From Amphibalanus amphitrite (taxonomy: Eukaryota > Arthropoda > Thecostraca > Balanomorpha > Balanidae): a stretch of 64,000 bases of DNA. The notes below the pieces were generated by a model. The model worked only from the letters and a program-made list of their open reading frames with translations, did no database searches and was not told where the DNA came from. Shown piece after piece: positions 1,526 through 49,320 of this stretch. Numbering within the stretch: position 1 is the first letter of the stretch; every line of letters starts with the position of its first letter. Location: NCBI RefSeq assembly GCF_019059575.1, contig NW_024881790.1:248001-312000 (forward strand). Reading direction: 5' to 3'. The position numbers were made by a program, and so were the translations under genes.

Positions 1526-1632
1526 TGCCCGGTCTCAGCACAGTCGAGCCGGCTAGCTGCTGCCCGGTCTCAGCACAGTCGAGCCGGCTAGCTGTTCCCC
1601 GGTCTCAGCACAGCCGAGCCGGCTAGCTGTTC
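1526..1632. repeat. Three 35-bp repeats at the 3' end of the bHLH gene
   Basis: The word GGTCTCAGCACAG occurs at 1531, 1566 and 1601, exactly 35 bp apart. Each unit also contains GAGCCGGCTAGCTG. In the unit nearest the gene, the CTA of that word is the complement of the bHLH stop codon (1623-1625). The array therefore appears to have grown from the last codons and stop of the gene. Confidence 0.9.
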
Positions 1633-2174
1633 CTCCTGAGAAGCTCCTGCAGCGCCGAAATGTAGGTCTGCGCCATCTGGAGCGTCTCAAACTTGGAGAG
1701 CTTCTTGTCGCTGCCCAGACAGGGCACCACTTCCCTGAGGCGCTCGAAGGCGTCGTTGAGGCCGTTCATCCTGCGCCGCTCGCGGGCGTTGGCGGCCGTG
1801 CGCCGGCGCCGCACCACCTCCGTGCTGGGCGGCTGGTGGCTGCGCCGGCGGCCGGCCCGGCGCCGCTCGGGCGCCTCGGCACGTGCCGGCCCGCCGTACG
1901 CGCCGGCCGCCGTGTACTCGGAGTAGTAGCCCTCCTCGATGTAGCCTTCAGAGAAGCCGTCCGGGTACCCGTCAGCGAACCGCTCCGGAAGCCGATCCGC
2001 GCCGAAGAAGGAGCCCTCGGAGTCGGAGCCGGCCAGCAGAGGCGGCTTCTGGTTGGCCTGACCGGCAAACGGCGCCACCGGGGGGCCGCCGGCCGGCGCC
2101 GCCGGGTAACCGGTGAGCTGCAGAGGCGGGACGCACCCGAACGCCGCCGCCGGCGACAGCTCGTAGACGGACAT
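1623..2174 (-). CDS. Atonal-family bHLH transcription factor (ATOH/ato-like), single exon
   Basis: A 183-residue protein starting MSVYELSP at 2174. The open frame runs upstream to 2378 but begins there with GTG, so the first usable ATG is at 2174, with G at -3. Residues 122-177 form a bHLH: a basic region with ANARERRRM, helix 1 [11 protein letters not shown], a loop with a CLGSDKKLS word, and helix 2 [19 protein letters not shown]. These are the signature of the atonal/ATOH1/ATOH7 proneural group. Such proteins dimerise with E-proteins such as Daughterless, bind E-boxes in the nucleus and specify sensory neurons. As in fly atonal, the bHLH sits at the extreme C-terminus and the gene has no intron. 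The N-terminal part is Ala/Pro/Gly-rich with an acidic Tyr-rich stretch near residues 88-108. Codon use is very GC-rich compared with the surrounding repeats. Family assignment is firm; which orthologue (ato, cato, amos, ATOH7) is not resolved. Confidence 0.9.
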
Positions 2175-2372
2175 GGCCGGGGCACTGGGAGCCGCACCCG
2201 CCCAGCGCTGCAGAGCCGGAGGGTGCGCCCGTGCCGGTGTTTCAGCTGGTGCTGCCGTCCGGCAGACGCTGCTGGCGAGCAACCCGCAGGTGCCTCCGTG
2301 CCTGGTCGGCCCGCTGGTAACACTGAGCGCCGGCCGCCTGCCAGCTGCCGGCCGCCGCCTCCTCAATGGCTC

Positions 2373-2408
2373 CGTCACGTGACCGTCGAGTCAGCCAATC
2401 CGATTGGC
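2373..2408 (-). promoter_or_regulatory. Probable upstream region of the bHLH gene: CACGTG E-box and paired CCAAT boxes
   Basis: About 200-235 bp upstream of the ATG lie a CACGTG palindrome (2376-2381) and two oppositely oriented CCAAT boxes (2395-2399 and, inverted, 2403-2407). This suits a GC-rich TATA-less promoter. CAGCTG E-boxes occur nearby at about 2342 and 2450 and could allow bHLH autoregulation. Function is inferred from motifs only. Confidence 0.4.
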
Positions 2409-2735: not shown

Positions 2736-3627
2736 TACGAACTGCAGAAAGCTATTAGTGTCGCAAATGATTGATTGCCAATGAGTGATCAATTTGCTTA
2801 TGATTTCAAGAAGAAAATGTAAAATCAAATACCAAATGACATCGTCTTTATTTGTATTCTTTCCAGGACGAAGACAAAAACCCTGACCGGGCAGGAGGTA
2901 ATATCGCTGTGGGAAACCAGTGCCATCGTATATTGGTACGGTACAAACATCACTGATCATGCTCAATACCAATAAATGTCGGTGTAATTCATTGACAAGT
3001 GCGCTGTTTACATTCTTACGGTAATTCATGGGCGATGCTGGCCCCCGGTGCGGCACATTGGAGCGGCCGCGGAAAACCTGGCACCGTGACCGCCTCCCCC
3101 GGCCGCACCCGGTAGTTCTCGTTCCATGCAATCCGATAATCATTGCACTACGAGTGTAGCGCTCACACGCCCATCGCCAAGTCCATGAGTGCCAGACACC
3201 CAGCGAAGTGCCTTTGGACGTGATTGCAAGCGTGCATGCACATGATGGGTGTGATGCGAGGCATGGCGGCATCAATGTTGCGCTCGAGATATCGAAGCCG
3301 GTGCTCGGTCTGTGAGATCCCCGTCTCTGGCGTCATCATCTCCTGAAAGCTGGCTGTCATGCTGTTCTTCATCGCCGCCTTCATCGCCGACCAGCACTCC
3401 TCAATGGGGTTAAGGGGTGCGCTGTAGGGAGCGGTGCGGAGGACTTGGACGCCCTCAAACTCTGGCTCCGCTTGGATGGCCTCCAGGTCGGTGTGGGCTG
3501 GCGCGTTGTCGCACACCACCACGACATTCTCCATCGGCTCTGGACAGTGTCGAAGAGCTCGCAGGAGCCATTCGCAGCCGGCCCCCGCCAAAGTTAGTTG
3601 GTAGCACTGCTGCTCCACGGCGTACAT

Positions 3628-4207
3628 TTCCTACCAGCCCATAGGGTTTACATGTTAAATGGCCTGTTTTCGGCGAGCGATATCTCGGTCAACCTTTGAA
3701 GGAATCAATGGTTCTTCGCCTCAAATGATAGATCGATGAATTTTCTTTCGACAATTCCTCTAGCATTTTTCACGAAACCCAGCCGATCTTCTACGGCGTA
3801 CAGGGTAAAGATTTCTCTGCACGCCAGCACCCGCGATCCGCCTCTCCGAGCGACGGCGCGCGGTCCGCGGTAGCGCAGTCGGTAGCGTATCGGGCTACGG
3901 ATCCGAGGGTCGTGAGTTCGAATCCTGGGAGCGCCGCGTGATTTTGGCTAGAATTAAATGATGTAGATTCTTGAATGTTTGCATAATCAATTATTAATAG
4001 CTAATTGAATGTATCTGCCCACTAATCGGCCCCTTAAACCTTTTATTTAAGGAATTTAAGAAATGAATGTCACGTGCGCGTCACGACTGCCAACCATAAG
4101 CGCTACCATATGCTAGTTTGAACTAACTTTTTGCTAGTCCCGACCACATATAGTAGGTTTTCTAGTAGGTATACTAGAAATTCCTACCAAAGTTCGTCCT
4201 ACCCTTC
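3628..4207 (+). mobile_element. SINE-bearing insert in the mariner transposase
   Basis: This 580-bp non-coding block interrupts the transposase frame. The same block, with 45 bp of adjoining transposase sequence, recurs at 9060-9702 with a few percent difference. It contains a tRNA-Arg(ACG)-like part and an 8-bp-arm inverted repeat, TTCTAGTA...TACTAGAA, near 4155. On the transposase strand it is bounded by possible GT and AG splice signals, so it might behave as an intron. Confidence 0.65.
3863..3937 (+). repeat. tRNA-Arg(ACG)-derived SINE head
   Basis: An A box (TAGCGCAGTCGGTAGCG) and a B box (GAGTTCGAATCC) flank an anticodon arm with a TCGGG/TCCGA stem and loop CTACGGA, giving anticodon ACG. 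The D-arm pairs well. The T-stem (GTGAG against CCTGG) and the acceptor stem pair badly, so this is a tRNA-derived pol III promoter in a repeat and not a working tRNA gene. Confidence 0.65.
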
Positions 4208-5821
4208 ACTCAATATACCCTGATTCGCAGCAGTCCTCCTTGCGGAACGATCCGCGCCGCCGCTCCCAGTACACCATGCCCGTTTGGCTTATGGCACCGA
4301 TGACATGGATGTTGTCGCCCTTACCTGTGGCGACCTTCACGCAGCACCGTTGGCCGCGGCGGGACCGTCCCTCTGAACGTCGGAGAAACAAATTTACATT
4401 TGTTTCGTCCATGTACAGGATCGTCTTGCCAGCACCAGTGGCGTCCATTACCTTTCGCACAAAGGTTTAGGTGGCTCTTCTGTCTTTATTTGTCGCACTG
4501 TTCATTGTTACCGGCTCGGGCAAGACCTTCTTAACCGTGTACATGCGACCACTCAGGTGCTTGTGAACAGTGTTAGTGGACAGCTGCACACCAGTCTCCT
4601 CGCGCAGTTTGTTCGCGATCTCCTTCAGAGTGAGCTGAGGGCTAGCTTCCACATAGCCCACTAAAGTGTCAATCATTGCCGCGTCCACCTTGCAGACCGT
4701 TGCGCCACCTCGCTTCCTTGGTGGCCCGTCACCGTCACCCTCGCCTCGCCGAATGTAGCCGTAAGCAGTCTTCACGGCAACTCCATTGGCAGTGGCGGCC
4801 TGCTTCCAGTCGCCGCCAGCTTTGAAGCAGTCTATAATCCGCTTCCGAGCATCACGTGGGACTCGGACGTAGTGCCCACGCCGGGTTCCTGGTTTGACTC
4901 CACGTCGATTCGGCGTGTTTGCCGGCGCTGGTTGGTCAACTTCCTGATCCGTGTCTTCTAAGACCTGAAAGTCACCCTCCATGATGCAATGCAATTGCAT
5001 GGTACAGAAGTTATTGGCATTTACAGAAGAAATAAATATTACATAGACTATAAAGCCAACTTTTCACACCAATCTACATCAAGTGAGTGAAATAAGCAGG
5101 ACTCAAAGGAGCCGTCGTCTTCAGCTCATAAAAAATGTCAGTAAAATTAGTTTTTTTTTCACGTGCAATTTAACTGTGCAAAAACATGCACCTTGTTTTA
5201 GTAAACCTCCGTTAGGCACATCAGTGCACCCACCTGTATAGGCATAGGTTAATTAAATATCTACTATTATAAATCTTAAAAAGTTCCACGCCGCCCACGT
5301 CGGGGTTACTCCCTAAAAGGCTTATTACGGCGCCGTCGATTGACGCAGGAAGGTGAAATTTTCACGACTCGTGGGTCACGTCATTCAACAGGTCGTATTA
5401 AATTTTGGGCACGATGCGGCCGGGGGTGCGCCCGTGGCACGTGCTCATGTGCGCCATAGGGTTAGCATTAGAATCGGCATAAACACTTATTAAACAGGCT
5501 ATTGCTCGGAAACGGTGAGGGCTACGGGGGTGAAATTTTCATGCCAAGTCGAGCGCGTGCACTCATTTGTCGTATTAAATTTTCGACGGTGTGGGTTCAG
5601 CGGTGTGCACGTGGTGGGGCCGCGACCGGTGCCGAGCAGAAGGCACGTGCTTTAGGCTCAGTTGTTCGCTTAGAAAACTGAGTGAAAAGCATCAGAGCCA
5701 ACGAAGGCCGACACAAGGCACCGCTCGCCAAGGGGATTCGCCAGTAAAAACAATTAATTTGTTTTTGCAATATCTCAGCCGTTTCTGGGCCGATTTAGCT
5801 GAAACTTGGACTGTCGGTGGT

Positions 5822-6458
5822 AGTGTAGTGTAGGGTAGGGTAGGGGATTGTAGGGTAGGGTTGGGTAGGGGATTGTAGGGTAGGGTAGGGCAAAGGGTAG
5901 GGTAGGGTAGGGGATTGTAGGGTAGGGTAGGGTAGGGTAGGGTAGAGTTAGGTAGGGTAGGGTAGGGTAGGGTAGGGTAGGGTAGGGTAGTGTAAGGGTA
6001 GGGTAGGGTAGGGTAGGGTAGGGTAGGGTAGGGTAGGATAGGGTAGGGTAGTGTAAGGGTAGGGTAGGGTAGGGTAGGGTGGGTTAGTGTAGGAGTAGGG
6101 TAGGGTAGGAGTAGGGTAGGAGTAGGGTAGGGTAGGGTAGGGAATGGTAGGGTAGGGTAGTGTAAGGGTAGGGTAGGGTAGGGTATGGTAGTGTAAAGGT
6201 AGGGTAGGGTATGGTAGGGTAGGGTAGGGTAGGGTAGGGTAGGAGTAGGGTAGGGTAGGGTAAGGTAGGGTGGGGTAGGGTAGGAGTAGGGTAGGGTAGG
6301 TAGGGTAGGGTAGGGTAGGTAGGGTAGGGTAGGGTAGTGGTAAGGTAGGGTAGGGTAGTGTAGTGTAGGGGTATGGTAGGGTAGGGTATGGTAGGGTAGG
6401 GTATGGTAGGGTAGGGTAGGGTAGGGTAGGGGTAGGGTAGGGTAGGGTAGGGTAGGGT
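5822..6458 (+). repeat. (TAGGG)n pentamer array in Helitron H1
   Basis: Over 600 bp of slightly degenerate TAGGG/TAGTG pentamers. The long complementary open frame reading LPYPT is a by-product of the pentamer. The same array occupies the same place in every Helitron copy here. Confidence 0.95.
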
Positions 6459-6658
6459 TGCGTTCAGTAACATCTTAACTTACAAAGGGCTCGAAGAACT
6501 CGCATGCATCACCATCATACTTTACAGTTCAATTAAAAGCAGTTACCCACTTCTACAAAAATCATACCAATAAAAATGCAAGTTTCTACACCCAAACTAA
6601 TGCATCCGTTAATCATACATATCAAAACATACAGTTATCGCGTAAACCTGTACCTCTA

Positions 6659-7790
6659 CACCTTTTTAGGCGCAATTTCAAAAAGTTGAAGGTCAAATTC
6701 AAAAAGTTGAAGTTCAATTTCAAAAAGCCAAACACCAATTTCAAAAACCTTAAGTCCAATTTCAAATAAGTTAAGTCCATTTTCAAAAAAAATTAAGTCC
6801 AATTTCAAAAAGATAAAACACTATTTCAAATGATATGCTATGAACTATTACATTTAGTAACATTTAGTTTTTAGACCGTCATTTCCATGTAAACGATGGA
6901 AATGCAGCTTGCAAGTGAACATTTTAAATGACTCACAATAGCCAGGAGTATGTTGAGATAAACGGCTTCATACAAAAGAACGTGCAATATTAGAACGAAT
7001 GCTATTGTTGATCGTAGTTTTACTCGTTTTTACTCTGGTTGCCTCAAATGTTCAAATGGTTGCTAACTTCGAATTCAGCTAAAAAAAAAACTAGCCTAGA
7101 AGCATGTAAAACCCAAAAAAGTGAACCGGGGTCACCAAAGGTAATGACCTGGCCTGACCTTCAAGTGACCTTGACATCTACCCTAATGCTTGGGAGCAGC
7201 ATCAAATCACATGTTTGAACGTTTGAAACCACGGAAAGCTTGCAAACGCGCGGCTAATGCGAGCCGACATACGCCGAATAGCGATTCCGGCCAAACATGG
7301 TCTCGGAAAGTAGGTCACAGGTCAAAGGTCATTTGGGTCAGAGTCATTGAAATTTACAGGGTAGGTGTAAAATTGATCAATGCGAGGGTACTGAAAGTTT
7401 CGTCGCAATCGGCCGCTTTCCACGTGAGTTATTCGCGAAAAACCTTAGAGGGGTGCATCAACCTCCCCCCCCCCCCCCTGTGCCGACCGGGTTAAAGACA
7501 AAATAATTATGATACCAATCGTTACCCTACATCTTTCATCGAGTGAATCTAACATCTCATCATGTTTGCTATGGCATAAAAAGGTTATATTATCTCTTAT
7601 TGCATCACTCAACAACTCGTTTGAAATTGTATTTTATCTTTTTGAAATTGGACTTCACTTATTTGAAAATGGATTTAAGTTTTTTGAAATTGGACTTAAG
7701 CTCTTTGAAATTGGTGCTAAGCTTTTTGAAATCGAACTTCAACTTTTTGAATATGGTCTTTCACTTTTTGAAATTGCGCCTAAAAAGGTG
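6659..7790. mobile_element. CACC-TIR transposon with TA target duplication
   Basis: Inverted ends CACCTTTTTAGGCGCAA...TTGCGCCTAAAAAGGTG are flanked by TA (6657-6658 and 7791-7792) and split the CTAG end of Helitron H1. Behind each end lie mirrored subterminal repeats of about 22 bp built from AATTTCAAAAAG. The interior includes a relic of a piggyBac-like family-B MITE with AGGTCA words, ending GGG-TTAA near 7493. There is no transposase. TA duplication suggests the Tc1/mariner superfamily. Confidence 0.85.
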
Positions 7791-8192
7791 TAGTCTAGTA
7801 TTATAAATCTTAAAAAGTTCGCCGCCGCCGTCGGGGTTACTCCCTAAAAGGCTTATTACGGCGCCGTCGATTGACGCAGGAGGGTGAAATTTTCACGACT
7901 CGTGGATCACGTCATTCAACAGGTCGTATTAAATTTTGGGCACGATTTGGCCGGGGGTGCGCCCGTGGCGCGCGCTCATGTGCGCCATAGGGTTAGCATT
8001 AGAATCGGCAAAAACAGCCTATTGCTCGGGAACGGTAAGGGCTACAGGGGTGAAATTTTCACACCAAGTCGAGCGCGTGCACTCATTTGTCGTAGTAAAT
8101 TTTCGAGGGGGTGGGTTCAGCGGTGTGCACGTGGTGGGGGCGCGACCGGTGCCGAGCAGAAGGCACGTGCTTTAGGTTCAGTTGTTCGCTTA

Positions 8193-8612
8193 TAGTTCGT
8201 TTTTCTTAAGTTTGCCCCTCACTGTAAACATCTTTTTGAACATAGCACGAGAATTGCTAGCTGAATTACTGAGAAAACTGGTTCGCGCACATTGTATTGG
8301 AGATTTGAATAATATTTTCAAAATAAGTTTTGAACACCGACGATGTAACGATAATGTTAAACGCCGTGCAATTTATAAATTAGTTCAGACATAATTCCTG
8401 AGAAGTCGTCTATCACTGTGGAGCTGTAGGTATGGGCAAATACGAGCAATGAGTCTGTGAAATAGTAAACAAATTTGATGAAATTGATCGTCTGTGAAAT
8501 CTGGTGGAATCAATGTGCGCCAACCAGTTTTCTCAGTAATTCAGCTAGCAATTCTCGTGCAATGTTCAAAAAGACGTTTACAGTGAGGGGCAAACTTAAG
8601 AAAAACGAACTA
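8193..8612. mobile_element. Foldback MITE, TA target duplication (TAGTTCG family)
   Basis: Roughly 110-bp inverted arms start TAGTTCGTTTTTCTTAAG and enclose about 200 bp of non-coding DNA. It is flanked by TA (8191-8192 and 8613-8614). The empty site is visible in H1, where GCTTAGAAAACTG is uninterrupted at about 5670. A second copy is at 28353-29993. Confidence 0.92.
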
Positions 8613-8762
8613 TAGAAAACTGAGTGAAAAGCATCAGAGCCAACGAAGGCCGACACAAGGCACCGCTCGCCAAGGGGATTCGCCAGTAAATACAACTAAT
8701 TTGTTTTTGCAATATCTCAGCCGTTTCTGGGCCGATTTAGCTGAAACTTGGACTGTCGGTGG

Positions 8763-9059
8763 CAGTGTAGGGTAGGGTAGGGTAGGGGTAGGGTAGGGTA
8801 GGGTAGGGTAGGGTAGGGGTAGGGTAGTGTAGTGTAGTGTAGTGTAGGGTAGGGTAGGGTAGGGTAGGGTAGGGTAGGGTAGGGTAGGGTAGGGTAGGGG
8901 TAGGGTAGGGTAGGGTAGGATAGGGTAGGGTAAGGTTAGGGTAGGGTAGGGTAGGGTAGTGTAAGGGTAGGGTAGGGTAGGGTAGGGTGGGGTAGTGTAG
9001 GGGTACGGTAGGGTAGGGTAGGGTAGGGTAGGGTAGGGTAGTGTAAGGGTAGGGTAGGG
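8763..9059 (+). repeat. (TAGGG)n array in H2, left part
   Basis: Pentamer array as in H1, cut at 9060 by a segment matching the mariner/SINE locus. Confidence 0.95.
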
Positions 9060-9702
9060 TCGGCCCCCGCCGAAGTTAGTTGGTAGCACCGCTGCTCCAC
9101 GGCGTACATTTCCTACCAGCCCATAGGGTTTACATGTTAAATGGCCTGTTTTCGGCGAGCGATATCTCGGTCAACCTTTGAAGGAATCAATAGTTCTTGG
9201 TCTCAAATAATAAATCGATGAATTTTCTTTCGACAATTCCTCTACCATTTTTCACGAAACCCAGCCGATCTTCTACGGCGTACAGGGTAAAGATTTCTCT
9301 GCACGCCAGCACCCGCGATCCGCCTCTCCGAGCGTCGGTTCGCGGTCCTCGGTAGCGCAGTCGGTAGCGTATCGGGCTACAGATCCGAGGGTCGTGAGTT
9401 CGAATCCTGGGAGCGCCGCGTGATTTTGGCTAGAATTAAATGATGTAGATTCTTAAATGTTTGCATAATCAATTATTAATAGCTAATTGAATGTATCGGC
9501 CCACTAATCGGCCCTTAAAACCTGTTATTTAAGAAATTTAAGAAATGATTGTCACGTGCGCGTCACGACTGCCAACCATAAGCGCTACCATATTCTAGAT
9601 TGAACTAACTTTTTGCTAGTCCCGACCATATATAGTTGGTTTTCTAGTAGTTATACTAGAAATTCCTACCAAAGTTCGTCCTACCCTTCACTCAATATAC
9701 CC
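9060..9702 (+). mobile_element. Copied mariner/SINE segment inside the Helitron pentamer array
   Basis: It matches 3578-4216 nearly base for base: 45 bp of transposase coding sequence plus the whole insert with the tRNA-like head. TAGGG pentamers abut it on both sides. This suits capture by the Helitron or another copy event after the SINE-bearing insert had entered the transposase. Confidence 0.85.
9342..9417 (+). repeat. tRNA-derived SINE head, second copy
   Basis: Same A and B boxes as at 3863-3937, with the anticodon loop changed to CTACAGA. The T and acceptor stems pair poorly, so it is not a functional tRNA gene. Confidence 0.6.
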
Positions 9703-10008
9703 TGGGGTAGGGTAGGGTAGGGTAGTGTAGGGGTAGGATAGGGTAGGGTAGGGTAGGGTAGGGTAGGGTAGGGTAGGGTAGTGTAGGGGTAGGGTAGGGT
9801 AGGGTAGGGTAGTGTAGGGGTAGGGTAGGGTAGGGTAGGGTAGAGTTAGGTAGGGTAGTAAGGTAGGTTAGGGTAGTAGGGTAGGTTAGGATAGTAGGGT
9901 AGCGTAGGGTAGTAGGGTAGGGTAGGGTAGTAGGGTAGGGTAGGGTAGGGTAGTAGGGTAGGGTAGGGTAGGATAGGGTAGGGGTAGGGTAGGGTAGGGG
10001 TAGGGTTG
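9703..10008 (+). repeat. (TAGGG)n array in H2, right part
   Basis: The pentamer array resumes after the captured segment. Several TAGGGTAG hybrid units are present. Confidence 0.95.
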
Positions 10009-10612
10009 AGTTCAAAAGGGCCCAACATACAAAACACTTGAACACCCCGCAACTATCACCATCCCTTACAGTTCAATTAAAAACAGCTACCCAAATCTAC
10101 CCAAATAATACACCTAAAAATACAAGTCAATCACCCAAACTAATGCACCCGTAGCATAACATAAATCAAAACATACAGTTATCGCGTAAACCTGTACCTC
10201 TAGTCTACTATTATAAATCTTAAAGTCCGCCGCCGTCGGGGTTACGCCGGCGGCGTGACGCCCAAAAACGGCTATTTCGGCGCCGTCGATTGACGCAGGA
10301 CGGTGAAATTTCGACGACTCGTGGGTCACGTAAATGAACAGGTCGTATTAAATTTTGGGCACGATGCGGCCGGGGGTGCGCCCGTGGTGCGTGCTCATGT
10401 GCGCCATAGGGTTAGCATTAGAATCGGCAAAAACAGGCTATTGCTCGGAAACGGTAAGGGCTACGGGGGTGAAATTTTCGCTGTAAGTCGGACGCGTGCA
10501 CTCATTTGCCGTATTAAATTTTCGAGGGTGTGGGTTCAGCGGTGTGCACGTGGTGGGGCCGCGACCGGTGCCGAGCAGAAGGCACGTGCTTTAGGCTCAG
10601 TTGTTCGCTTAA

Positions 10613-13407
10613 AGGGACCATCCCACCTTAACATTAGTTTTGAGTTGAGATAGCCAAGTTTGCGGCCAGGCTCAGAAACCACCATTTATCCTGGTCGCAA
10701 CCCCCGCAGCTTTATGGTGTTCAAGAAATTTCTTCCCTTTACTTGCAGGGTGGGACCAGCTTAGTCCCTATCTCTTAACCATTAGCGGTTTTTTGATGAC
10801 GTCAGCAGTCATTTCAACGCCCGCCATTCCTTGAACCCGAGTTTTGCTGACCTTGAGCTCCCTTTTTTATTAACGTGAAATGAGAAATCCGTCGTCGGCG
10901 CTTGGTCGGCGCTGAGAAAGCCTATTGCTTTTCATTTTAATTTGAATATTAGAAGATACCCACCACTCGAACTTGGACTGATATTATACCAAGGCCGAAG
11001 ATGATCAAGCTGCCTGCTATATCTGGAGCTTGGTGTTCAACTTCAACATGGAATAAAAAACAAAATATCAAAGCAAACTGGATATGGTACTGCAAGTTAA
11101 AGTCCAAAGAAATTTGAAGAGCTGACAATTGACATTAATTCTTTTCCTGCAAGGTTTCCATATGGAGATCACACCATGAAGAAATATTTTTTGATGTTAA
11201 CAGTTAAAAGGGGATTGATCTTCCAGTTTTGACGAAAGACGCTGCTGACTGTCTTTGGAAAAGGATGTCGGCATGAGGTGCAATTTTGCTTGTGAAGTGG
11301 TTATAACTGGTCTTTTCACAGTATTAAATTGAATGTGCCATTGCAGCCAAGTGTGTTATCATGTAAGGTAAAATCAAAACTACAATGTTGGTTTTACGAG
11401 CATTGAGAAGGCTGGTAGGTAACACCTGCCTGTGCTCGTAAATCATGCTGCCAAAGTATTCTAAATTAATTTTATCATACACTTTTGTTGTCCAGAATGG
11501 TTGCACTATTGTTTGGTATCATATTATTTCATGTAAGTATGGTAGTGTAAAGTCCGACCAACATGTTACCAGATTTGAAGCTGTTACGTTACCTAAGTAG
11601 GTACCTGTTTTTTACTGGCATGGTGAATGTCACCTGGATTTTGTTTTGAGGTGCAGACCTAGTAACTCTGACTACATGGGTTTGAAGCTATTATCTATTC
11701 TGTTTTTACTGGCCTGGTGAATGGCGACTGATGTTGTCCGTGGATGGCACTGAAACAAATTTTGAGTGTCATGTACAGTGTTTTAATACAATGCTGAGGG
11801 CTGAAAGTTGTCTTGTTTAGAGTGGTGAAAGTTCAGGATATGCCAGCCACCATGGTGGGTCAGAGTTAATGTGTTGCAGTCAGTTCGGCTTCGGCAAGCA
11901 CACGGATGGGCATACGCATCAAGACCTGCTCTGCCATACTTTCAGCCAATTTTACCTAGGTAAGTCTTTTCTTTTTTTTTTCTGCCAAAAGCTATGACAT
12001 TGTGAATTTCAGTGCTGTGGCCTGTGTGTAGCTTTCAGGAAAGCAATTCTAAATAAAGCTCTGATAAAGTGCAAAATCAGCAATGCAGCCCTCTATTACA
12101 TTTTCTACAACATCTTACTTGTTCCTTGCATGGAGAGAAAAATGCAATGTTATGAATTCGTTTATTCACATAATTTGACAAGCATGCAGTTACCTGCTAC
12201 TATCACTGCACAAAACAGAGCAGAAAACATCAGTTGATCAAACACAAGACACAACAGAAGTTTACAACATAGGGCTGCCGAACCTGCTTCCTCCCACCAC
12301 AGTTGATGCCATTTCCTAGCCTGGCTTGATGTGAGCACTGAATTGCTGCTTTGTCTAATTACAGCTCACTACCATTCAACTTAAACTACTCTCTTTAAAG
12401 TAAGAGTGAGAGCGTTCAGTGTTCATAGCAGCTCGACAGACGACAGACAACAAACATCTTGACAAACCAACCAGTGTTTGATTTGGCTAATGATTTATGT
12501 GCTTGTTGTATCATGGCCAAACTACTTTAAAAGCAATAATCCCTGTTTCATCTTGATCTTGCTTTTATTTCCATTTGAACTCAGATCTTGAAACAATCAT
12601 CTGAAGTGATATCAGATACTGGCTTCTGTTTCTCTTGAAAGCAAGTTAAAACAACAATGATAAACTAAGGCAGGAGATGTGAGTTGTGGCAGTAGATTTT
12701 TGATTCAACATATGTCAACCTTATATTGCTTGAGACCTCTGTGACAGACAAACAAATATTTATAGTTTTTTGATAGTTTGGATTCTTGGCTTGATTTAGC
12801 AGATCAGCTGAGAACCTTGACTTTGAAATCACATAAATGTCATGGTACCCGAACGAATCCTCGCATGACATTTCTTCGTAGCACAATTTTTTCGTCCGCA
12901 TTTCTTCGTCTACAAATCTTCGTCGGTGCATTTATTTGTCCCTCAATGCTTACTCTTGCATATATTTGCGTTGAAGAAGAAATGCGAGCCGATTTTCATA
13001 GACCCTGATGCGAGACAAAGTAATGCGATACGAATAAATGCCCTGACGAAGATTTGCAGACGAAGAATTGCGATACGAAGAAATGCCATAAGAAGAATTG
13101 TCCTGGAATCCTTTATTGGCCATCATATATTGACCTTGATAAGATAAACGCATCATTCGCGCAATATTTGTCGCACTTTGATACCAAACTATTGCTTCCA
13201 AATGCCGAAGTAAAGAAAACCTTTATGTGACGTCATAGAAACAGCGAAGAATTCCCAAAAAGTAAACAAAAATAAAAGTCTTATATCTCGAAAACGGGTG
13301 AATATTTTCCGGTAAAATTTGGTAGATGTTCATTTTCGCTCTTTGTGATTCACGCTACATCACTTTTATGCCAATTCATTAACTTTTTTGAAGGTGGGAG
13401 GGTCCCT
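10613..13407. mobile_element. TTAA-flanked element with AGGGACC inverted ends
   Basis: Ends AGGGACCATCCCACCTT...AAGGTGGGAGGGTCCCT are flanked by TTAA (10609-10612 and 13408-13411). The empty site is the CGCTTA(A/G)AAAC junction of the other Helitron copies. The 2.8-kb AT-rich interior contains no recognisable gene in either strand. TTAA duplication is typical of piggyBac-type integration, but these ends do not start CCC, so the superfamily is uncertain. Confidence 0.75.
12858..13105. repeat. Imperfect palindrome of about 13-bp GACGAAG(A)ATTTGC words
   Basis: The left half repeats the complement (TTCTTCGTC, CAAATCTTCGTC); the right half repeats GACGAAGATTTGC and TACGAAGAAATGCC. Open frames over both strands are low-complexity. 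Similar words recur at 56120-56220. Confidence 0.65.
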
Positions 13408-13544
13408 TTAAAAAACTTTGACAACGAAGGCCGACACAAGGCACCGCTCCCCAAGAGGATTCGCCAGTAAATACAATTAATTTGTTTTTGCAATATCTCA
13501 GCCGTTTCTGGGCCGATTTAGCTGAAACTTGGACTGTCGGTGGT

Positions 13545-13942
13545 AGTGTAGAGTAGGGTAAGGTAAGGTAAGGTAGGGTAGGGTAGGGTAAGGTAAGGTA
13601 GGGTAGGGTAGGGTAGGGTAGGGCAGGGTAGGGTAGGGCAGGGTAGGGTAGTGTAGGGGTAGGGGTAGGGTAGGGTAGGGTAGGGTAAGGGTAGGGTAGG
13701 GTAGGGTAAGGGTAGGGTAGGGGTAGGGGTAGGGTAGGGTAGGGTAGGGTATGGTAGGGTAGTAGGGTAGGGTAGGGTAGGGTAGTGTATGAGTAGGGTA
13801 GGGTAAGGTAGGGTAGGGTAGGGTAGTGTAGGGGTTGGGTAGGGTAGTAGGGTAGGGTATGGTAGGGTAGTAGGGTAGGGTAGGGTAGGGTAGGGGGTAG
13901 GATAGGGTAGGGGTAGGGTAGGGGTAGGGTAGGGGTAGGGTT
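13545..13942 (+). repeat. (TAGGG)n array in H3
   Basis: Pentamer array with TAAGG and TAGGGG variants, in the same position relative to the Helitron 3' module as in the other copies. Confidence 0.95.
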
Positions 13943-14139
13943 GAGTTCAAAAAGGGCCCAACATACAAAACACTTGAACACCCCGCAACTATCACCATCC
14001 CTTACAGTTCAATTAGAAACAGCTACCCAAATCTACCCAAATAATACAGCTAAAAATACAAGTCAATCACCCAAACTAATGCACCCGTAACATAACATAA
14101 ATCAAAACATACAGTTATCGCGTAAACCTGTACCTCTAG

Positions 14140-15541
14140 TCTATATTATAAATCCTAAAAAGTCCGCCGCCCACGCCGCCGTCGGGGTTACTCCCTAAAA
14201 GGCTTATTACGGCGCCGTCGATTGACGCAGGATGGTGAAATTTTTACCAGTCGTGGGTCACGTAAAAAAACAGGTCGTATCAAATTTTGGGCACGATGCG
14301 GCCGAGGGTGCGCCCGTGGCGCGTGCTCATGTGCGCCATAGGGTTAGCATTAGAATCGGCAAAGACAGGCTATTGCTCGGGAACGGTGAGGGCTACGGGG
14401 GTGAAATTTTCACGCCAAGTCGGTCGCGTGCACTCATTTGTCGTATTAAATTTACGACGGTGTGGGTTCAGCGGTGTGCACGTGGTGGGGCCGCGACCGG
14501 CGCCGAGCAGAGGGCACGTGCTTTAGGCTCAGTTGTTCGCTTAAAAACCTGAGTGAAAAGCATATCGGCAGGTCGTTGACCTTTGACAATGAATACCGAC
14601 GCTGGGCACCGCTCGCCAAGAGGATTCGCCAGTAAATACAATTAATTTATTTTTGCAAAATCTCAGCCGTTTCTGGGCCGATTTAGCTGAAACTTGGACT
14701 GTCGGTGGTAGTGTAAGGTAGGGTAGGGTAGGGTAGGGTAGGACAGGGTAGGGTACGGTAGGTTAGGGGTAGGGGTAGGGGTAGGGGTAGGGTAGGGTAG
14801 GGTAGGGTAGGATAGGGTTAGGGTAGGGTAGGGTAGGTTTGTGTAGGGTAGGGTAGGTTTGTGTAGGAGTAGGGTAGGGTAGGGTAGTGTAGGGGTAGGG
14901 GTAGGGTAGGGTAGTGTAGGGTAGGGTAGGGTAGGGGTACGGGTATAGGTAGGGTGGGGTAGGGTAGGGTAGGGTAGGGGTAGGGTAGGGTAGGGTAGTG
15001 TAAGGGTAGGGTAGGGTAGGGTAGGGTATGGTAGGGTATGGCCTAGGGTAGGGTAGGGTAGGGTAGTGTAGGGTAGTGTAGGGGTAGGGTACGGTAGGGT
15101 AGGGTAAGGGTAGGGTAGGGTAGGGTAGTGTAAGGGTAGGGTAGGGTAGGGTATTGTACGGTAGGGTAGGGGTAGGGGTAGGGTAGGGTAGGGTAGTGTA
15201 AGGGTAGGGTAGGGTATGGTATGTTAGGGTAGGGTAGGGTATGGTAGGGTAGGGTAGGGTAGGGTAGGGTAGTGTAGAGGTAGAGGTAGGGGTAGGGTAG
15301 GGTAGGGTAGGGTAGGGTAGGGTAGGGTAGGGTGGGGTAGGGTTGAATTGAGTAACATCCTAACTTAAGGGCTCGAACAACTCGCATGCATCACCATCAT
15401 ACTTTACAGTTCAATTAAAAGCAGTTACCCAGTTCTTCACAAATAATACCAATAAAAATGCAAGCTTCTACACCCAAACTAATGCACCCGTTAATCATAC
15501 ATATCAAAACATACAGTTATCGCGTAAACCTGTACCTCTAG
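14140..15541 (+). mobile_element. Helitron copy H4 (last of the tandem array)
   Basis: It starts TCTATATTATAAATCC right after the H3 CTAG and ends CTAG at 15538-15541, followed by T. With the A before H1, the whole array occupies a single A/T target. The copy is uninterrupted at about 1.4 kb: 5' module, pentamer array, 3' module. It is the best reference copy of the family. Confidence 0.87.
14711..15345 (+). repeat. (TAGGG)n array in H4
   Basis: About 635 bp of pentamers with interspersed TAGTG, TAAGG and TAGGGG units. Confidence 0.95.
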
Positions 15542-23570: not shown

Positions 23571-24815
23571 CTACCCGCTGGTGGAGGCGCCGGCCGCCTG
23601 ACTTTCAGGACATGACACGTCCGTCACCTCGGATGGGGTGTAATCCTCCTCTGCAAAGACATCCCTGTCCGTGGGATATACATATGCCGCATTTCCTGAA
23701 GGCGTTGATAGCTGTAGATGGTGCCGCAGCCCTGAGGTATGCCTGACAGAATAGGCGCGCCACCTGGTAGAGAGTGACCACTCGGCCTGGATTTTGCCGG
23801 AGGAACTTCTCGATAGCCTGAGTGTACAAGCTGTAGAAGTAGAGCTGTAGCTGTAGAAGCTGTAGAAGGTGCTGAGCGGTTTCATGAAGCCCACGTCCAG
23901 CGGCTGCAGCCGATGGCTTGTATGCGGCGGGATGACCACGATGGTGACGTGGTTGTCCCTCGCGAGCTCAATTAGGTCCAGATTTCTGGTGTGCGTGAGC
24001 GTGAGATGGCCATTCAGTATGAGAAGAACTGGTTCTTCCGCACTGGGTTTGGCATGTCGTAGAAAGTGTTGGAACCAGCGCGTGAAGATGTCCGTCTGCA
24101 TCCACCCCGACCGGTGATACACGAAAACCGTCCCGGGCGGTGCTCCTTCTTCCAGATTCTGGTTCTCTTTTGTTCTCGGGAGTATCATCATCGGCGGCAC
24201 GAAGTTTCCGACAGCCGACATACACACTACCGCCGTGGTCAGCTCGCCTCTCTCAGCAGACGTCACGCTGCCGACCTGTTTCTTCCCCCTCCGGGCAAAA
24301 ATCCTGTTTGGCTTGCTCTGGACGGTTGTTATGCCGGTTTCGTCCACATTGTAAACGGCATGCGGACCCTTGACATTCTTACTGACCTTCTCCAGAATGT
24401 CAAAGAACTTCGACACCATTTGTTTGTTGAACCCTTTCGCGCGTGCCGCCGATGTCGCCTCAGGGGTTCTGAGAGCCAGATCCTTGTGTCGGGAAAGGAA
24501 ACCCTGCAGCCAGTCCATCCCCGCGATGCCGTTCTTCAAGCCATGTGGAAATTTATTTATTTCGGCGTACTGGAAGGCGAGGCTGCGAACGTCCTTCGGA
24601 GTCAGGCCGAAGAACATCTTCTCCATCTTCAAGATGTGCTCCTTCAGCCGGATTTCCTGAGCTGGAGTGAAGACTTGCTTCCTTGGCCCGAGCGCGACCT
24701 TCACGTTGCATTTCCCCCAAACTCTGCGCTGCAGCGAACTGCGGGGGACGCCGTACACTCTGGCTGCCTGGAGCGTCGTCATGCCATGTTCTATGTACAG
24801 CCACCGTGGCCGCGC
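23571..24815 (-). pseudogene. pogo/Tigger-type (CENP-B/jerky-like) DDE transposase, inactivated
   Basis: The frame opens inside a psq-type helix-turn-helix (TLQAARVYGVPRSSLQRRV). A CENP-B-like DNA-binding part follows (IAGMDWLQGFLSRHKDL), then a DDE_1 core. Counting from the ATG at 24782, the first Asp is residue 147 (NVDETGI) and the third lies in LQPLDVGFMKPL (Asp296). The second acidic residue, normally in LxLDGH, is Asn257 here (LLILNGH). After residue 305 a GCTGTAGAA-type microsatellite shifts the frame; the true C-terminal part continues in another frame at 23829-23605 (AIEKFLRQNPGRVV...). The HTH is 5'-truncated where family-B MITE sequence begins at about 24837. It would have moved a pogo-like DNA transposon but is dead by substitution, frameshift and truncation. 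Confidence 0.9.
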
Positions 24816-28068: not shown

Positions 28069-28352
28069 CGGCGCCTGGCGGTAGGTCCGCAGTGGGACCG
28101 CGTCAGTGCCGGTAATAGTTTGATGCGGGAGGGCACGCCATGTCATGCCCACGAGGATATGGTGTCTCGGGACTTCCGAGGTCGAGGAATAAAGGTCGTC
28201 GGACATTTGAGCCTGACAGCCTGAGTGCCCTGCGCTTTCAAGAAGGAGAACAATTATAATGTATTCGCACACAGGGTCCGTGGCGTCTGCACGACTAAAG
28301 TGCATGTACTAACTTGAACACATTTTATTCAAAGGTGAGTGGAAGTCGACTA

Positions 28353-33822: not shown

Positions 33823-34602
33823 GTGCCCATAGTTAGTGGTTCTGAAGGTGTGCTAGTTGGTCAGGTGGGTCACCGTGACGGAGCGGGTGTCGCGCACCTG
33901 GCGCGCCGCTCTGCGCTGAAGGGCCGCCGCGCCGCGCCGCGGACCGGGCCGCGCCGGCGGCCGGCGCGCGCGATGGGCCGTGACGGAGAGCCGGCGACAG
34001 CACGCAGCGCCAGCCACACAATGGGGCGGATGGCGGCTGGTCATCGGCACAGAGCAGTCACCCTCCACGGCGCCGACCAGGCTGCACAGTGCACAGTGCA
34101 CACACATCAGACCCCACCATAGGGCATGACGTATTAAAACTTTTCCTTCTCAATCACGGTCCTCCTGTGACTTCCCTTTACTCCTGAATGGTAGAAGGTC
34201 AGCTGTACAAGAAAAAACTTACGGAAAAATAATTTCTGATTCTGCCCCATCATTCAGTTTCGAACAAAACAGTTTCCAGATTCCCAAAATTGTATTTTGG
34301 CTTGGGTGTCAAAGGGAAACTTATTCAAAAAGGGGATGAAACTCAAGAATTGCGGGGCAGATAAGGCCCAAAATGACAGGAAATGATCATTTATATATAA
34401 CTAGAGGTACAAGTTTACGCGATAACTGTATGTTTTGATATGTATGATTAACGGTTGCATTAGTTTGGGTATAGAAACTTGCATTTTTATTGGTATTATT
34501 TGTGAAGAACTGGGTAACTGCTTTTAATTGAACTGTAAGGTATGATGGTGATTGGTGATGCATGCGAGTTGTTCGAGCCCTTTGTAAGTTAGGATGTTAC
34601 TC

Positions 34603-35036
34603 AATTCAACCCTACCCTACCCTACCCTACCCTACCCTACCCTACCCTACCCTTACACTACCCTACCCTTACACTACCCTACCCTACCCCTACCCCTACA
34701 CTACCCTACCCAACCATACCCTACCCTACCCTACCCTTACAGTACCCTACCCTACCCTACCCTTACACTGCCCTACCCTACCCTACCCTACCTTACCCCT
34801 ACCCCACCCTAACCTACCCTACCCCTACACTACCCTACCCTACCCTACCCTACCCTTACACTACCCTACCCTACCCTACCCTACCCTACCCTACCATACC
34901 CTACCCTTACACTACCCTACCCTACCCTTACTCTACCCTACCCTACCCTACCCTACCCTACCCTACCCTACCCTACCCTACCCTACCCTACCCTACCCTA
35001 CCCTTCCCTTCCCTACCCTACCCTACACTACACTAC
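34603..35036 (-). repeat. (TAGGG)n array in H5 (CCCTA on plus strand)
   Basis: Same pentamer and same position within the Helitron as in H1-H4, inverted with the element. Confidence 0.95.
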
Positions 35037-35504
35037 CACCGACAGTCAGAAGTTTCAGCTAAATCGGCCCAGAAACGGCTGAGATATTGCAAAAAACAAA
35101 TTAATTGTATTTACTGGCGAATCCCCTTGGCGAGCGGTGCCTTGTGTCGGCCTTCGTTGTCAAAGGTCAATGACCTGCCGGCTCTGATCAAACGTCCAAC
35201 TGTCATACCACAATATTTCCACTCAGTTTTTTTTAAGCGAACAGCTGAGCCTAAAGCACGTGCCCTCTGTTCCGCGGTTCTAATGCTAACCCTATGGCGC
35301 ACATGAGCAGGCGCCACGGGCGCACCCCGGCCGCATCGTGCCCAAAGTTTAATACAATCTGTTCAATTACGTGACCCACGAGTCGTGAAAATTTCACCCT
35401 CGTGCGTCAATCGACGGCTTTGAAATAGACGTTTTTGGGCGTCACCCCGACGGCGTAACCCCGACGGCGGCGCCGCGGCGGCGGACTTTTTAAGATTTAT
35501 AATA

Positions 35505-35736
35505 CCGTAAGGTGGGGCTATTTGAGACAGTGGGGCTATTTGAGACAGTATTTAAAATTGTTATAAAATAAAAACCGTTTGAAATTTATGCTTAATTTTT
35601 TCTCAGGCGATTAACCGCTCGATTCCACACCTTTCTGAGCAAAAATATTACATAAAAATCAAACGCTCTTCATTTTATAGCGATTTTAAATACTGTCTCA
35701 AATAGCCCCACTGTCTCAAATAGCCCCACTTTACGG
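35505..35736. mobile_element. Foldback MITE, TA target duplication (CCGTAAGG family)
   Basis: Inverted ends CCGTAAGGTGGGGCTATTTG carry two copies of GGGGCTATTTGAGACAGT in each arm. The element is flanked by TA (35503-35504 and 35737-35738) and lies in the first bases of Helitron H5. Non-coding, 232 bp. Confidence 0.88.
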
Positions 35737-38459
35737 TAGTAGCTTTCCGGTGCATTCCCTGGAAATTTAGCGTGTTTTAATTGGAGGCAAGTGTCAACCA
35801 ATGCATAAATCGTTGGATTTTGAGCGTGCGATTTTTTGCAACAATACTTTTTTCTTTTCTTTTTTCTTTGAATGAAACAGCCATGATTGGACAGTGATTT
35901 TTCGTTCAGAGCCTTACCCATCTGCTCGCTGCTAGCATTATTGCGCTGTGAGGGTGAGCACCTTTTAGTTAAATGTTTATCGTAAAATACAGTGGAATCT
36001 GCTTAATAAATCCACCTTGGTGACGAGGTGTTTTGGATTTATTAACTGGTGGCTTTATTAACCGAAGTCAGTTATTTTCATCAAAAAAGCATGTATCGCA
36101 GCTGCACATTCCGTTCTCCCGCATTACAAGCGTATAGGCTAACATTTCTCATTGCCTTGCTTATTACAATGAAAGTGACCGCGGGGCTCCACCACTGGTG
36201 AAGTCACGAGGGTCCGGACCCCTAATAATTTGACTTTTGTAATGCACCATAATGTATAAAGGCAGGTTTTAGGGTTGGCGTGGGTTGGATATGCCCCCGA
36301 ACCTGCGACCGTAGAGACCGTAGTGCGGGAGCATGTCCCCCTAAAAGGTACCAGCGCACACTGCAAAGCTGTCGCAGTGATTAAGTCAACATATCCATCC
36401 ACGATCACTCCCCGTCATGCCTGCTATGCCAACGAAACAGTCGAACGTGCCTGCTTCTCGGGAACATTTCTCTGAAGTGCACAGTAATTGCGCTCTTGAT
36501 AGCCCTGAACTCCTGTTTTTAGAACTCCAACTGCTGCAGACCGCTGCTCCAGCACGGTTCTTTAGGAGCGGGTTGGATGCCACATTTCGAATGGGGAGAC
36601 GTTACTGCGGTCTCCGGAACTCCCAAGTGGCTTTATTAACCCGCGCCCTGCTGGGGGGGGGGGGGGGGTGTTCCCTTGTGGTTTTCCGCAAAGCGCCGTC
36701 GTTTTTGGTACACCTTATCATACATCAATTCTACACATGTTGTAAAAATTTCAGACCAAGGTCATTCAAGGTCGGGTCACCAGGTCACTTGAAGTGACCT
36801 CACCTCATAAAAAGATTCAATGTCTGCCATAGCTACACTGAGTGACCGATTGCTTTGAAACTTTCAGTGATTGATAAGGGTAACAGTATCTATAAAATAT
36901 TTATCTCTGAATTTTAATATCGGTGACCTAAGGTCAGGTCAATTTTGCGACCTCCCCATTTTAAGTCGATGGGAGAAAATTGAAATGCGCCTCTTTTAGA
37001 CGAAAGACATTATTAACACTTTCAAACACTGAATTACAAGTGGTTTAGACACACTGAACATGAAAATGGTGTCCGTGACCCCTATTTATGCCCCTGAGGT
37101 CATCTCAGGTCACGAATGGTGTCTAACAGTTTTTCGCAAATAGCTTTTGATAGAGGCATGCTAGAGCGGTGAAAACGCCTTAGCTGTGTTCAGCTCGACG
37201 ATATGGATCGACTGATATGCAACATGACCCTTTCCAGTCAGGTCATGACCTTGACCTAAGGTCAAATTTTCAAGTTGACCTTTTAAGGTCAAGTTACAGT
37301 TCATTCGATGCGTCTTGACGAGAGGAACACGATGCCAGTAAAAGTAAGCTCGTACAAGGCTTGGGTCAAAAGTTATTGCAGAAAAACTGTTTCCGAAAAA
37401 AATCGGCTATTTTTGCAGTTTTTGCCCCCTGCAGGCCGTTGACGTCAGGTCAAATCTGAGAGAATTACTCAGAAAGGGCGTTAACCCTCGCCCCGTTGGG
37501 GTGGGCCATTTTGGCCCCCCCCTGTGGTTTTTCCTGAATAGCAAGAAAACGGCGGCGCGCAGCGCCGCCAAATTTTCAGTACCTTCCTGGGCATCAATTT
37601 GATACCTTCACACCAAATTTCAAGTCTTAGGTCACCTTAGGTCAGGAGTTATTGAGGTCAAACTGAGGTCATGTTCGAGCAAAAATGAGCAAAAAACATG
37701 CAATCTTGAAACGCTCACCAAATCTACAGTTACCAAGCAATTTCAAAGTTCTTTATATGGTCTAGTAAACAAAAAGCGGCCCTACAAAATTATTATCTCG
37801 GATTTTCAAAATGGTGGATTTTGACCCCAACAAATTCAAAAAATTGATTTTTTTAGAAAAACTAAGAAAAAAAACAATCCAAAATTTTCCCGAATTTCGA
37901 AAAAAAAACGGAATATATGTGATAGTCCCTGCGCTCTTCTATATACATACCAAATTTCAGATCGATATATCGTTTTTTGGCCAAGTTATAGCGAAAAACT
38001 GTTCAAAAATGATGACGTCAAATTTTTGAACTCAATTTTTAGCGATTCTAGACCACGTACGGCAAAACAAAGACCACCATTGAACTCTCCGTGACGAGCT
38101 GCATCGATTCAATATCCATTTTATGCAAAAATATTAACTTTGAAATTTGACCTAATTTGACCTGACCTTGACCCAAGGGCGGATCCAGCCGGCCGTCTTG
38201 GGGGGGGGGGGGGGCAACCGGTTGGGACTAGCCAAACTTAGGGTAGGTACCCCCAAATCTAGTTTTCTCACCGGTTTTAGGCCACTCATTTTTCACCCTT
38301 CGCCTTTTCATCGAAAAAAATAAACGAAAACATTTGCAAAAAGTGAGATTTTTGTCTCAGCTGAGTCAAGGAACTTATACCTTTTTGGTAACGTAGAATA
38401 AAGGCTTAAATCTCCACATGAGCTGTCAAGCCAGGTAAAGAGGGGGATTTTTTTCTTAA

Positions 38460-49307: not shown

Positions 49308-49320
49308 AGAATACTAAGGT

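What the first reader, a model, noticed from the sequence alone, without database searches (positions are those of the whole stretch)
5260..15541. Four Helitrons in exact head-to-tail tandem
Each unit ends CTAG and the next begins TCTA immediately, with no bases between (7793/7794, 10203/10204, 14139/14140). The outer flanks are A and T, one canonical Helitron target. Exact tandem arrays fit rolling-circle read-through or repeated insertion at an existing terminus. Here each unit has since acquired its own insertions.
Basis: partly seen in the sequence, partly recalled or inferred. Interest (0 to 1): 0.75.

Follow-up and report, generated by a model that had tools for sequence, protein, structure and literature searches.

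The report
Helitron arrays joined end to end
Four copies of a small jumping DNA element sit tail-to-head with no base between them, and the same exact join occurs hundreds of times in this genome, apparently because new copies are added at the front end of old ones rather than being run off one template in a row.

Summary
The tandem is real. Four non-autonomous canonical Helitrons (TC...hairpin...CTAG, outer flanks A and T) lie head-to-tail at 5260-15541. Two junctions are exact CTAG|TCTA. At the first, unit 1's CTAG is split by a later 1,132-bp TA-flanked inverted-repeat element. Unit 4 carries no insertion.

Genome searches (807.6 Mb) show a common arrangement. The exact 20-base junction occurs 271 times; the same head preceded by A, 201 times. 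Of 705 exact tails, 397 are followed at once by TCTA. One cluster has an A-flanked head and nine further exact junctions. The exact head-to-head word: 0.

Units of one array do not look like copies of one donor. Window tails are of two types 20% apart, in order A-B-B-A. Among 13 units compared, U4 and U1 have their closest mid and tail on another contig (tails 0.0% and 0.5%). Over 12 array units, within-array differences are not clearly lower than between-array ones.

I favour unit-by-unit addition of different family members at a resident 5' end. Read-through blurred by later exchange is not excluded. Tandem Helitrons are known; scale, orientation and array comparison are the additions.

The parts
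5260..7793 (+). Unit 1 (U1): non-autonomous Helitron, 5' TCTACTATTATAAATC; own sequence 5260-6658 plus G at 7793; tail type A
6659..7790 (.). 1,132-bp inverted-repeat element CACC...GGTG inserted in U1's 3' terminus (CTA^G), TA at 6657-6658 and 7791-7792; it sits on the U1|U2 junction and so postdates it
7794..10203 (+). Unit 2 (U2), ends CTAG at 10200-10203; tail type B
8193..8612 (.). 420-bp inverted-repeat element in U2, TA duplication; a relative (84% identical) lies at 28351-28789
9061..9704 (+). about 645-bp repeat with a tRNA-Cys-like stretch inserted in U2's minisatellite; relative (96%) at 3579-4222
10204..14139 (+). Unit 3 (U3), exact junctions on both sides; tail type B
10613..13407 (.). 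2,795-bp insertion in U3 with TTAA duplication and terminal inverted repeats AGGGACC...GGGTCCCT
14140..15541 (+). Unit 4 (U4), uninterrupted, 1,402 bp, ends CTAG, then T; tail type A
6630..6652 (+). 3' hairpin of U1 (TACAGTTATCGCGTAAACCTGTA)
10174..10196 (+). 3' hairpin of U2
14110..14132 (+). 3' hairpin of U3
15512..15534 (+). 3' hairpin of U4
5819..6458 (+). GGTAG minisatellite core of U1
8767..10006 (+). GTAGG minisatellite core of U2 (8767-9060 and 9705-10006), split by the tRNA-bearing repeat
13542..13941 (+). GGTAG minisatellite core of U3
14707..15343 (+). GGTAG minisatellite core of U4
34401..35743 (-). U5: solo relative, T after its CTAG and A before its head; first base of the head changed; interrupted near its 5' end by an element at 35505-35736 with TA duplication

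Best explanation
These are non-autonomous canonical Helitrons (about 1.1-1.6 kb when uninterrupted) that are very often joined to each other. SHOWN: exact CTAG|TC joins, several hundred genome-wide; no exact head-to-head join found; in the arrays read, neighbours are different, mosaic family members, and U1 and U4 are closest in mid and tail to units of another contig's array. INFERRED: arrays grow one unit at a time. The likely step is that the Rep (HUH) transposase supplied by an autonomous Helitron nicks a resident copy at its 5' boundary A^TC, as it does to start transposition, and the incoming copy's CTAG-3'OH is joined to that TC. This is the reaction that closes a Helitron circle, but between two copies. 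The A stays with the newcomer, so no base is left between units, orientation is fixed, and the oldest unit should be the 3'-most. Later exchange between copies, and occasional duplication of sub-arrays, blur the units.
For: Exact junction 271, reversed control 0; 201 exact heads preceded by A; 397 of 705 exact tails followed by TCTA; of the 100 tails listed, 26 are followed by the exact 16-base head. Orientation: exact head-to-head word 0; junction pairs within 5 kb 77 same strand, 0 opposite, over the 100 of 271 places listed; tail pairs 79 same, 0 opposite, over the 100 of 705 listed. Of 54 clusters with a junction among listed places, 31 begin with an A-flanked head and 48 have no A-flanked head except at the start. 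Different donors: tails A,B,B,A about 20% apart; informative sites in heads 12|34 = 8, 14|23 = 2, 13|24 = 1; mids 12|34 = 1; tails 14|23 = 32, others 0; 0 of 20,000 label shuffles as clean. U4 vs V2 on contig C124: tail 0.0%, mid 0.8%; U1 vs V1: tail 0.5%, mid 0.8%. Nearest unit in own array for 3, 3 and 2 of 12 units in heads, mids and tails, where array sizes 4, 6 and 2 would give 4 of 12 by chance (my arithmetic). RepHel genes are present: 148 PF14214 matches, frames up to 1,960 codons, 0 of 14 control genomes. Chemistry: Helraiser joins its own TC to CTAG and prefers AT targets (PMC4778049, passages).
Against: Exchange between copies is strong and could have erased an original one-donor signal. 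Mean differences in mids are a little lower within arrays (5.8 against 6.7%; 595 of 5,000 shuffles as low), and adjacent units are a little closer in heads (6.9%; 771 of 5,000) and mids (5.5%; 670 of 5,000). U2 and U3 tails are 1.5% apart; V2 and V3 heads are mutually nearest. Tail spacings on C48 recur with a 4,571-bp period, as if a sub-array had been duplicated. Only three arrays (12 units) were compared unit by unit, plus one divergent pair. Six of the 54 clusters have an A-flanked head inside or at the end. On C310 an A-flanked head on the + strand lies 142 bases from a junction on the - strand, and one search found one opposite-strand pair of A-flanked heads within 5 kb (9 same-strand) over the 100 of 201 listed. 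The nested insertion that joins with an extra TCTA suggested was not confirmed. The head-to-head word needs both heads exact, and perfect palindromes can be lost from genomes or assemblies. That a nick at a resident 5' end is the target is not shown. Age order was not tested; private substitutions (U1 14, U2 12, U3 20, U4 23) lean the right way but prove nothing.
Confidence: 0.58

Rival explanations
1. Rolling-circle read-through: the transposase misses CTAG and a multimer of one donor (or of a circle) is inserted in one event; later gene conversion and exchange among copies made the units look different.
For: Exact CTAG|TC joins, direct orientation and the A...T outer flanks all follow. Bypass of the end is the published reading of bat and silkworm arrays (PMC4067079 passage). 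Exchange among copies is evident. Mids are slightly closer within arrays.
Against: Without later exchange it predicts units clearly more alike within than between arrays; heads 7.5/7.5%, mids 5.8/6.7%, tails 15.6/12.3% do not show that. Neighbouring tails differ by 20% while a unit on another contig is identical in tail.
Confidence: 0.25
2. A circle with joined ends (CTAG-TC) is inserted by homologous recombination into a resident copy. The crossover gives head of resident + tail of circle | head of circle + tail of resident.
For: It gives exact, direct-only junctions and head/tail mosaics at once. U4 and V2 share mid and tail but have 17 differences in the first 300 aligned columns. Helitron circles are documented (PMC4778049, passages; PMC13286980, passages).
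Against: The solo copy U5 is also a mosaic, so mosaicism needs no array. No reciprocal pair was identified. No circle was looked for.
Confidence: 0.25
3. Passive independent insertions: the 5' boundary A|TC is simply an AT target, hit by chance or because Helitrons favour AT-rich sites near other Helitrons.
For: AT is the preferred target (PMC4778049, passages); a near-miss CTAG|TAA|TCTAC on C23 looks like an insertion at the next AT.
Against: AT is its own reverse complement, so head-to-head joins should be about as common; the exact word was found 0 times against 271 direct joins. The window alone has 4,229 AT sites, so 397 of 705 tails abutting TCTA by chance is not credible.
Confidence: 0.04
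4. Ordinary tandem duplication by unequal crossing-over of one or a few units, as in a satellite.
For: A 4,571-bp recurring spacing on C48; U2 and U3 tails 1.5% apart; adjacent heads and mids slightly closer than average.
Against: Adjacent units are not clearly more alike than shuffled pairs: heads 771, mids 670, tails 4,153 of 5,000 shuffles as low. It cannot start an array, since it needs a first exact junction.
Confidence: 0.06

Closest known systems
Tandem Helitrons of bat, maize, rice, Drosophila and silkworm (Pritham and Feschotte 2007 not read, known through PMC2267711; passages of PMC5148889, PMC4067079, PMC5876387)
   Same: Head-to-tail Helitron junctions and tandem arrays; in bat, perfect CTAG-TC junctions as told in PMC2267711
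   Different: Here TCTA follows 397 of 705 exact tails, one cluster has nine exact junctions after an A-flanked head, and units were compared between arrays. A term search in the silkworm Helitron paper PMC3789558 found no 'tandem' or 'array'
Two adjacent maize Helitrons at r1 (PMC2267711, passages)
   Same: CTAG|TC with a G/T junction; two different elements, read as consecutive insertions; the host-A/element-T explanation is discussed there
   Different: One pair there, hundreds of junctions here; orientation test and array comparison added
Helraiser circles (PMC4778049, PMC5876387, passages)
   Same: TC joined directly to CTAG; AT target; hairpin before CTAG
   Different: Within one element and extrachromosomal there; between different chromosomal copies here
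Helentron/HINE elements with central tandem repeats (PMC4067079, PMC7492417, passages)
   Same: Non-autonomous rolling-circle elements, some with tandem repeats inside
   Different: Those insert at TT and have subterminal inverted repeats; this family has A|T flanks and CTAG
Mothra of rice (PMC4683698, passages)
   Same: High-copy canonical non-autonomous Helitron, TC/CTAG, with tandem-repeat blocks
   Different: No joined arrays in the passages I read

Membership tests
Canonical Helitron (non-autonomous) | 5' end TC | tested here: met
   TCTA at 5260, 7794, 10204, 14140
Canonical Helitron (non-autonomous) | 3' end CTRR (CTAG) | tested here: met
   U2, U3, U4, U5 and L009, and U1 when the element that splits it is set aside. 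The 705 tails were searched with CTAG in the pattern, so they are no independent test
Canonical Helitron (non-autonomous) | Hairpin near the 3' end | tested here: met
   Short hairpin TACAG...TGTA ending 7 nt before the end in all five window copies, weak: -2.1 to -2.2 kcal/mol
Canonical Helitron (non-autonomous) | Insertion between host A and T without target duplication | tested here: met
   Array flanks A/T; U5 A/T; 201 heads preceded by A genome-wide, a few of them with the A of an extra TCTA. No empty-site comparison was made
Canonical Helitron (non-autonomous) | Autonomous RepHel partner in the genome | tested here: inconclusive
   148 PF14214 matches (lower bound), frames up to 1,960 codons, 0 of 14 control genomes; which of them shares these termini was not tested
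Helentron / Helitron2 | Insertion at TT | tested here: not met
   A before the head, T after CTAG
Helentron / Helitron2 | Short subterminal inverted repeats | not tested
   One search listed only inverted repeats of 25 nt or more
Single-donor rolling-circle multimer | Units of one array nearly identical or closest to each other | tested here: not met
   (three arrays, 12 units); divergent pair X|Y

The most novel reading that the evidence does not exclude
The family is self-targeting: the transposase joins the 3' end of one Helitron to the nicked 5' end of another, circle closure in trans, so resident copies act as preferred landing sites and the genome accumulates one-way arrays that grow at their 5' end.
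Probability: 0.33. Interest if true: 0.75.

Novelty: new member of a known kind. Interest (0 to 1): 0.55.

Why it matters
Whether head-to-tail Helitrons come from rolling-circle read-through or from successive insertion was argued over a maize pair and bat tandems in 2007-2008 (PMC2267711 passages). This genome offers several hundred exact junctions, long arrays, single copies and distinguishable unit types, so the question can be tested by comparing units and individuals. If copies are joined in trans, Helitrons build satellite-like arrays by targeting themselves.

Tried and rejected
Rejected: segmental duplication with flanking DNA; Helentron placement (A|T, CTAG); nested insertion at TCTA^TATT as the cause of CTAG|TCTA|TCTAC, since its other half CCTCTAGTATTATAAATC was found 0 times. 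The bare 8-mer CTAGTCTA is no evidence on its own: 6 seen against 11.5 expected in 351 kb. Led nowhere: Rfam on the window (0 matches at gathering score); 80 kb from contigs C2-C9 (no tail match; weak head matches, best E 0.0021). A regular expression for junctions was wrong and printed nothing; the motif scan replaced it. A control asking for joins with 1-30 bases between tail and head did not complete, nor was a search for tail A followed by TCTA (asked once). Scripts only waited. The report was held back once for checking; I then corrected the within/between wording, the U4-V2 comparison, the Helentron row and the CTAG terminus argument.
Full report
What is there. The window (G000:C293:248001-312000 of an unnamed 807.6-Mb genome in 2,644 contigs) holds four related units in direct orientation at 5260-15541. 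Each has a 5' head of about 0.4 kb starting TCTA, a 120-bp mid segment, a GGTAG minisatellite and a tail of about 0.2 kb with a short hairpin and CTAG. The junctions 10203/10204 and 14139/14140 read CTAG|TCTA. The first reads GTAG|TCTAG because a 1,132-bp inverted-repeat element with a TA duplication sits inside unit 1's CTA^G. Unit 2 holds a TA-flanked inverted-repeat element and a repeat with a tRNA-Cys-like stretch; unit 3 a TTAA-flanked element; unit 4 nothing. The outer flanks are A and T. A solo copy, U5, lies at 34401-35743 on the minus strand, flanked A and T.

How common the join is. The 20-base junction occurs 271 times genome-wide (149 forward, 122 reverse; reversed control 0). The same 16-base head preceded by A occurs 201 times; heads preceded by anything else were not counted, and a few of these A's belong to an extra TCTA (below). 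The 28-base tail occurs 705 times and with TCTA directly after it 397 times. Each listing shows only the first 100 places. Of the 100 tails listed, 26 are followed by the exact 16-base head and 35 have no other listed tail on their strand within 5 kb. From 100 junctions and the 72 A-flanked heads up to contig C346: 54 clusters hold a junction, 31 of these begin with an A-flanked head, 6 have one inside or at the end, 30 clusters hold only A-flanked heads, and the median step is 1,452 bp (77 steps). A cluster on C124 has an A-flanked head and nine further junctions, with steps of at most 3.1 kb; I read 10 kb of it. A divergent subfamily on C1 (L011, minus strand, 1629/1628) also shows CTAG|TCTA.

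Orientation. Because AT is its own reverse complement, insertion at a resident A|TC should give head-to-head pairs as readily as head-to-tail ones. The exact head-to-head word was found 0 times; it needs both heads exact, so it is somewhat stricter than the direct-junction word. Junction pairs within 5 kb were on the same strand in 77 cases and opposite in 0; tail pairs 79 and 0; A-flanked heads 9 and 1, none opposite within 60 bases (100 of 201 listed). On C310 an A-flanked head and a junction on opposite strands lie 142 bases apart. Loss of perfect palindromes from the genome or assembly could contribute to the zero.

Are the units one donor's copies? In the window, tails are A,B,B,A with about 20% between types, while heads group U1 with U2. 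Informative sites: heads 8 for 12|34, 2 for 14|23, 1 for 13|24; mids 1 for 12|34; tails 32 for 14|23 and none other; no shuffle of 20,000 was as clean. I read six whole units of the C124 array (L031: tails A,A,B,B,A,B, the third 11-13% from the other B tails) and two of a C246 array (L032: B,A). U4's tail is identical to V2's on C124 and its mid differs by 0.8%; U1's tail and mid differ from V1's by 0.5% and 0.8%. U4 and V2 have 17 differences in the first 300 aligned columns, then 0-2 per 100 in most windows, but up to 6 in 85 within the minisatellite. Over the 12 array units, mean differences within and between arrays were 7.5 and 7.5% (heads; 2,176 of 5,000 shuffles as low), 5.8 and 6.7% (mids; 595), 15.6 and 12.3% (tails; 4,970); adjacent units 6.9, 5.5 and 15.9% (771, 670 and 4,153 shuffles as low). 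The nearest unit, ties counted, lay in the own array for 3, 3 and 2 of 12; array sizes alone would give 4. The array units look much like a draw from the whole family. In the divergent pair X|Y on C1, hundred-column windows differ by 4-14% over most of the body and 22-33% towards the tail.

Results against this reading. Mids, and adjacent heads and mids, lean slightly towards likeness within arrays. U2 and U3 tails are 1.5% apart, V2 and V3 heads are mutually nearest, and V5's nearest head is V4, though V4's own is W1 on C246. On C48 the tail spacings 1316, 1670 recur after 1585, and two A-flanked heads lie 4,571 bp apart, as if a three-unit sub-array had been duplicated. Joins with extra bases exist: CTAG|TCTA|TCTAC on C12 and C48 and CTAG|TAA|TCTAC on C23. 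For the first I predicted a nested insertion whose other half was not found. Exchange between copies is strong and could hide an older one-donor origin. The control for inexact joins did not complete.

Mechanism. Shown: exact, direct joins, no exact head-to-head join, and neighbours that are different family members in the arrays read. Inferred: the Rep nuclease, which in Helraiser acts at the 5' TC and joins TC to CTAG to close circles (PMC4778049 and PMC5876387, passages seen), joins the tail of one copy to the nicked head of another. This leaves no host base, fixes orientation and needs no chance hit. Recombination of a joined-end circle with a resident copy is a close rival. RepHel genes are present (148 PF14214 matches), but the partner was not identified.

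Known work. Tandem Helitrons are reported for bats, silkworm, maize, rice and Drosophila (passages of PMC4067079, PMC5148889, PMC5876387). The authors of PMC2267711 (passages) described one maize pair with the same G/T join and argued for consecutive insertion, against the rolling-circle reading of bat tandems. In the titles and abstract starts of my seven answered literature searches I saw no paper that compares units between arrays or tests orientation genome-wide; most subscription papers are not held, so this is a weak negative. I file this as a new member of a known kind with unusually good material for an old question.

Noticed in passing
window 9061-9704 and 3579-4222; L009 about 3845-4029: A repeat of about 645 bp with a tRNA-Cys-like stretch (ARAGORN, anticodon ACA) and apparent 8-bp duplications (gggtaggg, attcgcag, seen by eye); the copy in L009 lacks its 5' part and has the same 3' end, as in a retroposon.
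   Followed up: partly
window 6659-7790; relative near 2562-2714: Inverted-repeat element with 21-bp repeats near its ends and a TA duplication.
   Followed up: partly
window 35505-35736: 232-bp inverted-repeat element CCGTAA...TTTACGG with TA duplication inside the head of the solo Helitron U5 (read by eye).
   Followed up: partly
G000:C48:1063710-1075974: Tail spacings 1316, 1670, 1585, 1316, 1670: a possible 4,571-bp higher-order period of three Helitron units.
   Followed up: partly
L034 (C12), L033 (C48); by coordinates also C174:492512-492559: Joins with a four-base TCTA between CTAG and the head; unexplained.
   Followed up: partly
G000:C72 and C246, first 60 bases: Contigs that begin inside Helitron arrays (junctions at bases 29 and 38), so arrays may break the assembly and be longer than seen.
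   Followed up: no
L011 5700-7400 and L021 1400-3100, minus strand: A shared repeat of more than 1 kb (by eye) that carries a Helitron-like tail with TTATCGCG but no CTAG.
   Followed up: no
L011/L022, C1:182003-185081 minus strand: The divergent two-unit array has TCACTGTCTAGCC at both outer edges; unit X lacks its 5' end and unit Y lacks CTAG at the expected place.
   Followed up: partly
genome, PF14214 matches: Many RepHel matches with equal scores and open frames of 1,847 or 1,960 codons on several contigs, suggesting recent autonomous Helitrons.
   Followed up: no
window 1623-2390 -, 23571-24815 -, 48204-49313 -: A helix-loop-helix frame, a DDE_1 transposase frame and a reverse-transcriptase frame (Pfam).
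   Followed up: no
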